Shown here: piece after piece, positions 26,505 to 63,940 of the stretch
How positions within the stretch are numbered: position 1 is the stretch's first letter
Layout of the letters: every line of letters begins with the position of its first letter
Source: Psychrilyobacter atlanticus DSM 19335
Lineage (GTDB): Bacteria; Fusobacteriota; Fusobacteriia; Fusobacteriales; Fusobacteriaceae
Length of the DNA: 64,000 nt
Direction: 5' to 3'
NCBI RefSeq assembly: GCF_000426625.1
Contig: NZ_KE384547.1
Location: forward strand, 1,286,986-1,350,985
Position numbers and translations under genes: made by a program
The notes under the pieces: generated by a model
Databases searched by the model: none
What the model was told of the DNA's origin: nothing
The model's input: only the letters and a program-made list of their open reading frames with translations

Positions 26505-26558
26505 GGTTAAAGAACTCCCCTAATAACTTAGTAGAATTCACCATATACTTAATTTTTT

Positions 26559-26626
26559 CACTCATAGTAGGTCGTTTACGGTGACCTGTAGAGACGCTCC
26601 TCCTTATTAAGAGCATATACGAGTTA
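26559..26626 (-). ncRNA. purine (guanine-class) riboswitch aptamer
   Basis: Three-way junction on the minus strand. P1 pairs CACTCAT with the opposing GAG-containing strand. P2 is UGCUCUU / AGGAGCG with loop AAUAAGG. The junction UCUCUACA precedes P3 (AGGUC / GACCU) with loop ACCGUAAAC, almost identical to the B. subtilis xpt loop CCGUAAAU. The specificity position in UACUAUGAG is C, which pairs with guanine, hypoxanthine or xanthine rather than adenine. Confidence 0.9.
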
Positions 26627-26678
26627 ATTTATGTGGTTATAATACGATATTTATATGACAATGTCAAGAAGAATAATA

Positions 26679-42832: not shown

Positions 42833-43999
42833 TTAGTCATGATTTAAAGCTTCTACAACCTCTAACTTTGCCCCTCTGTATGCCGGAAATATACTGGACA
42901 AAAATACAATTATAACATTTGCTCCTATTATTAGAAGCACCTCTTTAAATTTTATTTCCACAGGAATTTTATTTAAATTATAAATACTAGTTATTTCATT
43001 TATATTATAATTTTTTAGATACCATAATATTACACCTGAAATCATTAATCCAATAACTATTCCAGCTACTCCTAAAAATAACCCCTCTATAATAAATATT
43101 CTCATGATATTTTTACTGGAAAATCCCATAGATCTCATTATTCCTATATCTTTTATTTTTTCTTTGACAGACATACTCAATATTACCCAGATTAAAAATC
43201 CTGCTATGATGACTATTAGAGAAAATACCATTATCATTCCACTTTTCTGTAGAGATAACGACGCCAATAAATTTCTGTTTAAATCTTTCCATGTGCTGGT
43301 AGAAAGACCGGTTTCCTCTCTGATCTGTAATGCTGTTTTATCTGCACTGTATATATCGTCTAAAAACACCTCTAAATCTGTTACTGAATCTCCTCCATAG
43401 GTTAAGATTTGAACTACTCTCAGGGGAACTATTATTATAGTTTTATCGTATTCCTCATAACCTGACTGGTATACTCCTATTATGGTCAGAGTTATCTGAA
43501 TATTCTTAGGAGTAACTATAGTTACCTCATCCCCTAATTCTGCTCCTAAGTCATCAAAGAGTTTCTTTCCTATGATAAATTCTGTGGGGGTTTTGGCATC
43601 CATGGTTCCGTAAATTACTTTTTCATCCAAATCCATAGTCTTTTTCGCATCATCAAAATCCAGACCATTTATCTTTACACCTGTTACATATGACCCATGA
43701 ATTTGATTATACTTTAATATCCCCTGTTCTGAACTTTGAGGAACTACCCCTTTTACTCCCCTTATCTTTTCTACCTTTGACTGGAACTCCCTGTAATTTT
43801 CTATGGATTTTCCATTTTTTGTGACTATTATATGGGAAGTCATTGAAAAGATACTTTCCATCATACTTCTATCCAGCCCATTGGATATCCCAAGGGAAAC
43901 TACTAATACTATGATTCCTATTGCTACTCCGAACATTGCCACTACACTCTGTCTTTTCCTTTCAAAAATATGCTTTTTTGCTATAAAAAATTCTATCAT
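42833..43999 (-). CDS. MacB/FtsX-type ABC transporter permease
   Basis: 388 residues. The N-terminal membrane helix (VVAMFGVAIGIIVLVVSLG) is followed by a large extracytoplasmic domain (about 45-250), then three C-terminal helices of the FtsX fold with the mechano-coupling segment DIGIMRSMGFSSKNIMRIF. Such permeases work with a separate LolD/MacB-like ATPase, but none is adjacent. No recognisable gene upstream in 44000-44400. Confidence 0.85.
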   Translation of the reverse strand: MIEFFIAKKHIFERKRQSVVAMFGVAIGIIVLVVSLGISNGLDRSMMESIFSMTSHIIVTKNGKSIENYREFQSKVEKIRGVKGVVPQSSEQGILKYNQIHGSYVTGVKINGLDFDDAKKTMDLDEKVIYGTMDAKTPTEFIIGKKLFDDLGAELGDEVTIVTPKNIQITLTIIGVYQSGYEEYDKTIIIVPLRVVQILTYGGDSVTDLEVFLDDIYSADKTALQIREETGLSTSTWKDLNRNLLASLSLQKSGMIMVFSLIVIIAGFLIWVILSMSVKEKIKDIGIMRSMGFSSKNIMRIFIIEGLFLGVAGIVIGLMISGVILWYLKNYNINEITSIYNLNKIPVEIKFKEVLLIIGANVIIVFLSSIFPAYRGAKLEVVEALNHD

Positions 44000-44407
44000 A
44001 TTTCACCCTCAATTCTTCTTATATTATCCATGAATTGTGATAGGTTCCCATAATTCCAATATCAATAATATTGATCCTATCTCTTCTCAAAAAATTATTC
44101 CCTATATATTTTATACAACACTTCACAATTAAATTCAATTTTATTTAATTTTAACCTTTTTTTAATAAATCATAAAAAAAAGTAAACTTAAGATCTCCTG
44201 GTAAAGTATCTTTTATAAAATTCATATGAATTCAGATGTTTTTTCACACAACTTTTAAAAAAAATATTTTTCTCAATTTTAATTTTTTCCAAAATGCAAA
44301 TATTTTTTAACTCCTTTTTAATAATATTTAATTTGATTTTAATTTAAATTATGTTAAGATTAATTATCTACATAACTGTAGTGAAATAAATTATTGGGGA
44401 GGATTTA
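44000..44407. other. AT-rich intergenic region upstream of the RAMP gene
   Basis: No gene. It is strongly AT-rich; a plausible promoter (TTGATT, 16-base spacer, TAAGAT at 44333-44360) precedes the RAMP gene. I looked for spaced repeats characteristic of a CRISPR array and found none. Confidence 0.5.
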
Positions 44408-45088
44408 ATGGATTTTAGCAAATTTCAGAATAAATATATAATAGAAGGAACTTTATCAGTCTATTCCTTACACATTGGGAAATATAGACCAGAGGAAAAT
44501 TTTGATTCTCCTACTATAAAATATTTAAATAATATAGCGTATATTCCCGGGTCAAACTTTAGAGATCGTTTTCAATATAAATTAAAAACTTTAGTAAATT
44601 TAGGACTTACCCTTGAAGATAGAAAATTACATGTTTTGGATATCAAGGAAATTTTTGGAAATATCAACACAAGAAAAAACTCTAACAATGTGGGAGGAAA
44701 GATCTATATAGAAGACCTTATAATAGAACCAAATAATAAAAACTCTATCTATGACGGTATAACTATAAATAGAGGTGTCGGAATAAGAAAAAAAAATAAT
44801 AAATTTGATTATAATATCATCGAAAATTCAACTTTTAAATTAAATATAATACTAGAAAATTTGCAAGATTATGAGGTCGATCTAATAAATATAGGATTAA
44901 ACCTTATGAAAGATGATATGTTTGGTCAGAAAACAACAGGTGAAATTGGAAGGTGTAAATTGAATATTGACAGGGTTAAATATATAACTAAAGATACTTT
45001 AAATGACTATTTATTCCATGGTAAAATGAAGACAGAAACCCAGGAAATTTTAAATAAAGGAAAAATAAGTTTGAATATAGAAAAGTAA
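44408..45088 (+). CDS. solitary Cas7/Csm3-like RAMP protein
   Basis: 226 residues resembling the RAMP (Cas7) proteins that coat CRISPR RNA in type III complexes. Matching elements in order: IEGTLSVYSLHIGK (beta-1 plus the His loop), IPGSNFRDRF (46-55, compare IPGSSLRG), EIFGN (81-85, compare LFGS), GGKIYIEDL (97-105), TINRGVGI (119-126) and a C-terminal Gly-rich GQKTTGEIGRC (173-183). No Cas10, Cas6, other RAMP, Cas1/2 or CRISPR repeat is in the window. It has its own promoter and an excellent ribosome site (GGGGAGG). It may be a remnant or an independent RNA-binding protein. Assignment rests on motif order, not a profile search. Confidence 0.75.
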   Translation: MDFSKFQNKYIIEGTLSVYSLHIGKYRPEENFDSPTIKYLNNIAYIPGSNFRDRFQYKLKTLVNLGLTLEDRKLHVLDIKEIFGNINTRKNSNNVGGKIYIEDLIIEPNNKNSIYDGITINRGVGIRKKNNKFDYNIIENSTFKLNIILENLQDYEVDLINIGLNLMKDDMFGQKTTGEIGRCKLNIDRVKYITKDTLNDYLFHGKMKTETQEILNKGKISLNIEK

Positions 45089-45127: not shown

Positions 45128-45152
45128 GATGACTAAAAATAACATAAAATAT

Positions 45153-45218
45153 TAGCAAAGCAGGGGAAATCCTGTGACGCAAAGCTATAGGACCTTTAAA
45201 ATGGTAGCCAGTTGCAGA
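45153..45218 (+). ncRNA. c-di-GMP-I (GEMM) riboswitch, copy 1
   Basis: The conserved core is present: GCAAAGC, then the P2 hairpin GGGGAAATCC with GAAA tetraloop, GACGCAAAGC, the CCUUU receptor side and AUGGUAGCC, closed by GUUGC pairing with GCAA. Spacing fits the GEMM-I consensus. Confidence 0.9.
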
Positions 45219-45245
45219 TCTTTCGGGACCTGTATTTTTTTTTTA
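45213..45245 (+). terminator. riboswitch expression-platform terminator
   Basis: CAGATCT-TTCG-GGACCTG hairpin with one A-C mismatch and a TTCG loop, then TATTTTTTTTTT. It overlaps the 3' strand of the aptamer closing stem, so ligand binding can control it. Confidence 0.8.
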
Positions 45246-45278: not shown

Positions 45279-45430
45279 ATCGAAGCAAGCTGACCCTCAT
45301 CCTTTTAGGTTGCTCCCTCGTAGGGAGTAACCAAGCAAATAAATACCATAGATTATTTATTATAGTTACTTTCTCCCTACGAGGGAGAGAGAGTAAGAGA
45401 GAGGGTGGTGGGTTCGACGAAACTCGCTAG
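45279..45430. repeat. palindromic MITE-like element
   Basis: Two inverted arms, each carrying CTCCCTCGTAGGGAG (about 45330-45344 and, complemented, 45389-45404), flanked by GTAAC/GTTAC and outer CCCTC-rich segments. The arms surround about 40 AT-rich bases. It sits between the riboswitch terminator and a gene remnant, as an insertion would. Confidence 0.55.
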
Positions 45431-63592: not shown

Positions 63593-63603
63593 AAAAAAGT
63601 TTT

Positions 63604-63673
63604 GGCAACTGGCTGTCATATCTATAGACTTAGACCCTTAAGTTTTGCGTCATAGGATTTCCCCTATTTTGCC
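63604..63673 (-). ncRNA. c-di-GMP-I (GEMM) riboswitch, copy 2
   Basis: Minus strand: GGCAAAA, P2 hairpin ATAGGGGAAATCCTAT with GAAA tetraloop, GACGCAAAAC, receptor segments GUCUAAG and UAUGACAGCC, closed by GUUGCC with GGCAA. All key GEMM-I positions are present; it differs from copy 1 in GCAAAAC versus GCAAAGC. Confidence 0.88.
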
Positions 63674-63940
63674 TTTTTCAGAATTCAATTTTTTAATTAC
63701 AATTCTAATTATGTTATCATATCAATTTATTTTTTTCAACTAAAAAAACATTAAATAATTCTTTTATTGAATTGTATCAAAGGGGATTTCTCGATCTTTT
63801 TATCACTTTCTCATTGATTTGGAGATACTCTTCTAAAATCTTAGTTAAAATTTAGTTTTATTAATTAAATCTTAAATTTATCTTCATTTTTTTAATTTTT
63901 ATGTTATAATTTCTAAAACTATAACACAGGGGGATTAATT
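63674..63940. other. AT-rich divergent promoter region
   Basis: No gene. It should contain the promoter for the minus-strand riboswitch (a TTGAAA, 17-base spacer, TAACAT is visible) and the one for the plus-strand gene at 63941 (TTATAAT near 63904). Confidence 0.45.

What the first reader, a model, noticed from the sequence alone, without database searches (positions are those of the whole stretch)
44408..45088. Cas7/Csm3-like RAMP protein with no CRISPR-Cas neighbours
The motif order (HIGK loop, IPGSNFRDRF, IFGN, GGKIYIEDL, NRGVGI, Gly-rich tail) is that of a type III Cas7 subunit. Yet the gene is monocistronic with its own promoter, and no Cas10, Cas5, Cas11, Cas6, adaptation gene or repeat array lies in the window. 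It could be a relic, or an RAMP repurposed to bind other RNAs. A c-di-GMP riboswitch transcript starts 11 bases after its stop codon.
Basis: partly seen in the sequence, partly recalled or inferred. Interest (0 to 1): 0.75.

Follow-up and report, generated by a model that had tools for sequence, protein, structure and literature searches.

The report
Lone Csm3-type Cas7 without CRISPR
One building block of a type III CRISPR RNA-targeting machine sits alone in a Fusobacteria-group genome in which no other part of such a machine was found, yet selection keeps its sequence intact, so it has probably been put to a new, still unknown use.

Summary
The ORF at 44408-45088 is a real RAMP: Pfam RAMPs 8.5e-9, PADLOC Csm3 1.7e-16, and a Cas7/Csm3 fold in Foldseek. 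By sequence and tree it descends from one subunit only, the Csm3-type Cas7 encoded right after cas11 in type III-D operons of related Fusobacteriaceae. Its own genome has no other RAMP, no Cas1, no Cas10 and none of the relatives' repeats.

The same solitary gene occurs in two further genomes of the genus. In G007 it is 90% identical and syntenic. In G004 it is 71% identical at a different site and lacks 36 residues near the C-terminus. The three form one 100/100-supported clade on a long stem, nested among operonic Csm3s.

Between G000 and G007, dN/dS is 0.11 (bootstrap 0.06-0.18), equal to operonic csm3 and to neighbouring genes. Of 3000 neutral simulations, 90% broke the frame and none had as few amino-acid changes. 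It is therefore not a decaying relic in this lineage. Fast change on the stem followed by strong constraint suggests exaptation.

The catalytic Asp33 and the basic helix-1 residues are kept; the Gly-rich "SRG" loop is altered. Most likely it is an autonomous RNA-binding protein (inferred). A Cas-mimic inhibitor of type III complexes is the main rival.

The parts
44408..45088 (+). Solitary Csm3-type Cas7 (RAMP) gene, 226 aa; Asp33 aligns with the catalytic Asp of Csm3/Cas7
   Evidence: dN/dS 0.11 against G007
44471..44479 (+). codons 22-24, HIG motif (H22-I23-G24), invariant in all 12 homologues
   Evidence: Alignment
44504..44506 (+). codon 33, Asp33, invariant; aligns with D33 of III-Dv Cas7-2x.1 and with the catalytic Asp of III-A Csm3
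   Evidence: catalytic role of the aligned residues from PMC11026444, PMC6461802 and PMC10289348
44546..44581 (+). codons 47-58, helix 1 PGSNFRDRFQYK: crRNA-binding helix of Csm3; keeps S49, R52, K58, gains R54, loses Arg56 (Q)
   Evidence: role of helix 1 from PMC10289348
44735..44812 (+). codons 110-135, thumb-like segment around INRGVGIRKKNNKFDY; fastest-changing part between G000 and G007, low model confidence
44921..44950 (+). codons 172-181, former Gly-rich loop: FGGKLSRGIG in operonic subunits, here FGQKTTGEIG (Arg and Gly lost)
44000..44407 (+). 408-base intergenic stretch to the divergent FtsX/MacB-type permease gene; must hold the promoter, none recognised above chance
45144..45219 (+). 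c-di-GMP-I riboswitch aptamer downstream of the gene; also present at the same place in G007; no evident gene under its control in the window

Best explanation
Shown: the gene is a Csm3-type Cas7 that separated from a fusobacterial type III-D effector operon before the species of this genus split. It now exists as a single-gene unit at two different chromosomal sites in three genomes in which no type III effector genes were found. It changed quickly after separation and, in the G000/G007 lineage, has since been held under purifying selection as strong as that on working Csm3. Inferred: it has been exapted as an autonomous RNA-binding protein. It would bind single-stranded RNA with the palm/helix-1 surface (Ser49, Arg52, Arg54, Lys58), without a CRISPR RNA, Cas10 or Cas11, and would protect, sequester or regulate cellular or foreign RNA. 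Asp33 leaves open a weak metal-dependent RNase activity, but in Csm3 this residue works on a crRNA-target duplex, so binding is more likely than cutting.
For: Family and fold. Descent from one subunit: blastp of the lone protein against ORFs of the III-D loci hits the post-cas11 Csm3 in all nine (E 7e-41 to 3e-28) and other paralogues only at E >= 0.001; the lone clade is 100/100 and groups with the Csm3s of G067/G062/G065/G017 at 95/98. Those loci are III-D by PADLOC: Cas10, Cas5_IIId, Csm3/Cas7_IIId, Cas6, CARF, Csx20. Isolation. Constraint: dN/dS 0.109 (0.058-0.180) for G000-G007 against 0.046-0.131 for 11 neighbours and 0.086-0.172 for operonic csm3; 72 substitutions fall 13/15/44 by codon position, 22 aa changes against a neutral mean of 48.7, none of 3000 simulations as low, 90% of them with a stop. 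Age: lone G000-G004 dS 0.58 against psd dS 0.63 fits vertical descent with relocation. Burst: stem of 1.36 changes per column against 0.40 for the operonic sister. Retained H22, G24, D33, S49, K58; altered SRG loop.
Against: No direct evidence of RNA binding or of expression. The gene is patchy (3 of 8 genomes of the genus). The G004 copy has lost 36 residues including the Gly-rich segment and evolves faster (dN/dS 0.32-0.39), so the function is dispensable or changing there. The stem length may be inflated by few sequences and the G004 gap. Constraint alone does not tell a cellular role from an inhibitor role.
Confidence: 0.5

Rival explanations
1. Cas-mimic inhibitor (anti-type III protein). 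The lone subunit inserts into type III-D complexes carried by other elements or cells, or ties up their crRNA or partner subunits, and makes them inactive, as AcrIB3, a Cas5 homologue, does for type I-B.
For: Precedent: AcrIB3 is a Cas5 mimic with 38% identity that displaces Cas5 (PMC13131331). The lone gene is 35-42% identical to operonic III-D Csm3, keeps the N-terminal and crRNA-facing helix and has altered the Gly-rich loop, and has relocated as a single-gene unit.
Against: No type III effector in any of the 8 genomes of the genus (several are incomplete), so no resident target. Not in a recognisable phage or plasmid: no relative in phage, plasmid or viral-contig collections. Constraint over a deep split in hosts without a target is hard to explain.
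Confidence: 0.2
2. Relic: the last surviving gene of a lost III-D locus, with no function.
For: Isolated cas loci are common and often read as remnants; type III has the highest share (28%) of isolated loci (PMC5294841). Patchy distribution; the G004 copy has a 36-residue deletion and relaxed dN/dS.
Against: dN/dS 0.11 with intact frame and no indel between G000 and G007. No decayed cas neighbours in either location. Present at two unrelated sites.
Confidence: 0.13
3. Spare or trans-acting subunit: part of a type III complex encoded elsewhere (missing 2% of the assembly, a plasmid, or in some strains only).
For: Strength of constraint equals that of operonic csm3.
Against: No Cas10, no second RAMP and no III-D repeat in G000, G007 or G004; loss of the SRG loop and the long stem branch do not fit an unchanged subunit role.
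Confidence: 0.07

Closest known systems
Csm3-type Cas7 subunit of fusobacterial type III-D effector operons (G067 L039:10066-10815 and orthologues)
   Same: Orthologous by best hit and tree; same fold; H22, G24, D33, S49, K58, D103, KFDY conserved
   Different: No operon, no Cas10/Cas5/Cas11/array found; shorter between residues 86 and 95; Gly-rich SRG loop replaced by TGE; G53 to D, Y54 to R; about 40% identity
Cas7-2x, first domain, of Synechocystis type III-Dv (PDB 8s9t)
   Same: Best PDB profile hit (1.7e-21); Asp33 aligns with its catalytic D33
   Different: Fused double Cas7 inside a crRNA complex
TIGR02581 Csx7 / TIGR02582 Csm3 (NCBIfam)
   Same: Significant partial matches (1.6e-13, 1.5e-6)
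   Different: Below both equivalog cut-offs
AcrIB3 (Cas5-mimic anti-CRISPR)
   Same: Solitary, diverged homologue of a class 1 Cas backbone protein
   Different: Different subunit and type; from a virus; here chromosomal with no target system found in the genus
Isolated cas loci (Zhang and Ye 2017, PMC5294841)
   Same: cas genes apart from arrays
   Different: Those have at least three cas genes; here a single gene under measured purifying selection

Membership tests
RAMP superfamily (PF03787) | Profile match above gathering score | tested here: met
   36.6 bits against 22.1
Cas7 group, Csm3 type | Closest homology and fold to Csm3 | tested here: met
   PADLOC Csm3 1.7e-16; Foldseek top hits Csm3; tree
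Cas7 group, Csm3 type | NCBIfam equivalog score for Csm3 (TIGR02582) or Csx7 (TIGR02581) | tested here: not met
   28.3 of 90 and 50.8 of 108 bits
Cas7 group, Csm3 type | Catalytic Asp in the RNase loop | tested here: met
   Asp33 invariant, aligned with Cas7-2x D33
Cas7 group, Csm3 type | C-terminal Gly-rich loop (GGxxSRGxG) | tested here: not met
   GQKTTGEIG in G000, GQKTTGQIG in G007, deleted in G004
Type III CRISPR-Cas system | Cas10 | tested here: not met
   None in G000/G007/G004 with a working control
Type III CRISPR-Cas system | Other RAMP subunits (Cas5, further Cas7) | tested here: not met
   Single PF03787 hit in the genome
Type III CRISPR-Cas system | CRISPR array | tested here: inconclusive
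   Repeat of relatives absent; no de novo array search of the whole genome was possible
Cas-mimic anti-CRISPR | Inhibits the cognate complex | not testable with these tools
   Needs an interference assay
Cas-mimic anti-CRISPR | Carried by a mobile element | tested here: inconclusive
   Two different sites in the genus; no phage, plasmid or viral relative found
Functionless relic | Neutral evolution (dN/dS about 1, broken frames) | tested here: not met
   dN/dS 0.109 (0.058-0.180), 0 of 3000 neutral simulations as conserved

The most novel reading that the evidence does not exclude
A type III Cas7 has been domesticated as a stand-alone RNA-binding protein outside CRISPR immunity, kept by purifying selection in bacteria without any type III system.
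Probability: 0.45. Interest if true: 0.75.

Novelty: new variant of a known kind. Interest (0 to 1): 0.52.

Why it matters
Backbone Cas proteins are normally seen only in crRNA complexes. A single, old, constrained Cas7 with no partners would be a clean case of a CRISPR RNA-binding subunit taking up another job, either cellular RNA biology or counter-defence. One review holds it an enigma that Cas proteins are so rarely recruited as inhibitors (PMC11656645). The protein is small and single, so binding and interference assays are straightforward.

Tried and rejected
Non-RAMP family: only a sub-threshold aspartyl-protease match. Other III-D paralogues as source: E >= 0.001. Phage, plasmid or viral origin: no hits (the viral scans use exact peptide patterns and are not exhaustive). 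Genome contigs gave only the G004 contig. Other single-RAMP genomes as parallel cases: G056, G037, G035 and G025 are cut or partly masked full type III operons and G041 a decayed one, so the lone gene is unique to this genus among the 61 genomes surveyed. Recent horizontal transfer between G000 and G004: not needed, dS equals that of psd. A compensated frameshift behind the NRGVGI/NKHTGI difference: rejected, no indels. Promoter: nothing above chance. A role for the riboswitch in control of this gene: it lies downstream, so not supported.

Full report
Observation. The ORF at 44408-45088 is present as described and is a RAMP by Pfam (8.5e-9, above the gathering score), PADLOC Csm3 (1.7e-16) and, below the equivalog cut-off, NCBIfam Csx7/Csm3. 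Profile search against PDB gives Cas7-2x of type III-Dv first (1.7e-21), then Csm3. The AlphaFold model (mean pLDDT 73, thumb 110-133 poor) matches Csm3 chains at E about 1e-6.

Isolation. In the whole genome (3 contigs, 3.54 Mb, 98% complete) PF03787 rings once, here. Cas1 is absent (I-B-like Cas1 is present in G004 and G006). A Cas10 profile built from three related III-D loci finds nothing in the genus but rings at about 1e-250 in G062, G065 and G067. The repeat of the relatives' arrays is absent but found 14 times in G067. Phages, plasmids and viral contigs gave no relative.

Origin. In the phylum, the lone protein matches the gene directly after cas11 in operons that PADLOC reads as III-D: Cas10, Cas7-Cas5 fusion (Cas5_IIId), a Cas11-like small protein (by position and size; no PADLOC hit), Csm3, a second Cas7, a Csx19-like small protein (by position; no PADLOC hit), a large Cas7, Cas6, CARF, Csx20. 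Against all ORFs of these loci it hits that subunit only. In the tree, the three lone proteins form one clade (100/100), sister to the Csm3s of G067/G062/G065/G017 (95/98), on a stem of 1.36 changes per column against 0.40 for the sister. The four outgroup rows are very long, so only the inner grouping should be relied on.

Distribution and place. G007 has it in the same place, including the c-di-GMP-I aptamer behind it. G004 has it between psd and a czcD-like gene; G007 has psd and czcD with a short spacer and no such gene. Homology between the two locations is limited to the ORF and about 29 bases before it. The segment in G000 lies between a PHP-domain gene and the Na+-NQR/Rnf-like genes; in G002 these blocks are joined differently and the segment is missing, so it is lineage-specific DNA at a rearrangement point.

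Selection. G000-G007: 72 substitutions, no indel, 13/15/44 by codon position, 22 amino-acid changes; neutral replacement of the same changes gives 48.7 on average, never 22 or fewer in 3000 trials, and a stop in 90%. dN/dS is 0.109 (0.058-0.180); neighbours 0.046-0.131; operonic csm3 0.086-0.172 and cas10 0.157. G000-G004 dS is 0.58 against 0.63 for psd, so the gene is about as old as the species split; its dN/dS there is 0.32 and the G004 copy lacks 36 residues. So the gene works in the G000/G007 lineage, and is changing or failing in G004.

Mechanism. Asp33 aligns with the catalytic D33 of Cas7-2x.1 (PMC11026444). In Csm3 most crRNA contacts come from helix 1 (S49, K52, K54, R56 in S. epidermidis; PMC10289348). 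The lone protein has S49, R52, R54 and K58 but Gln at 56. The C-terminal GGxxSRGxG is replaced by GQKTTGEIG. Thus an RNA-facing surface is kept while a feature shared by the operonic subunits is lost. With no crRNA source found, I infer guide-free RNA binding. A Cas-mimic inhibitor like AcrIB3 (PMC13131331) is the main rival; its weakness is the lack of any target in the genus.

Known or new. Isolated cas loci are known (PMC5294841), as are Cas-derived inhibitors. In the papers searched here I found no solitary Csm3 with measured constraint; these searches were limited to open-licence papers. I file it as a new variant of a known kind: a Cas7 by descent, not part of a CRISPR system by any tested feature.

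Limits. dN/dS is by simple counting (Nei-Gojobori). Three genomes only, one a fragmented MAG. Arrays could not be searched de novo and Cas6 was not searched separately. Expression and RNA binding are untested.

Noticed in passing
45144-45219: c-di-GMP-I riboswitch with no evident downstream gene in G000; in G007 the next + strand gene is a CRP-like regulator gene about 950 bp on, and in G004 two tandem copies precede an adhesin-like gene beside psd.
   Followed up: partly
45313-45387: 18-nt inverted repeat (CTCCCTCGTAGGGAGTAA) framing 39 nt right after the riboswitch, absent from G007: looks like a small palindromic (MITE-like) insertion.
   Followed up: partly
42833-43999: Second copy of a MacB/FtsX-type permease gene (69% identical to a paralogue found across the genus), present only in G000 and G007; in G007 it is split into two frames.
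   Followed up: partly
26545-26642 and 63601-63683: Purine riboswitch and a second c-di-GMP-I riboswitch, both on the minus strand.
   Followed up: no
L019:2645-3595 and L022:13569-15311: Radical-SAM-like proteins (CxxxCxxC) beside fusobacterial III-D operons, upstream in one genome and downstream in another.
   Followed up: no
L039:4442-5899, L040:11203-12555, L021:3880-5217: Gene for a protein that looks like a PIN domain joined to a protein-kinase-like domain (by eye, not searched), next to III-D loci in three genomes; possible linked defence gene.
   Followed up: no
L018:3193-3762: G004 copy of the lone gene carries an in-frame loss of 36 codons spanning the last RRM helix and Gly-rich segment.
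   Followed up: yes
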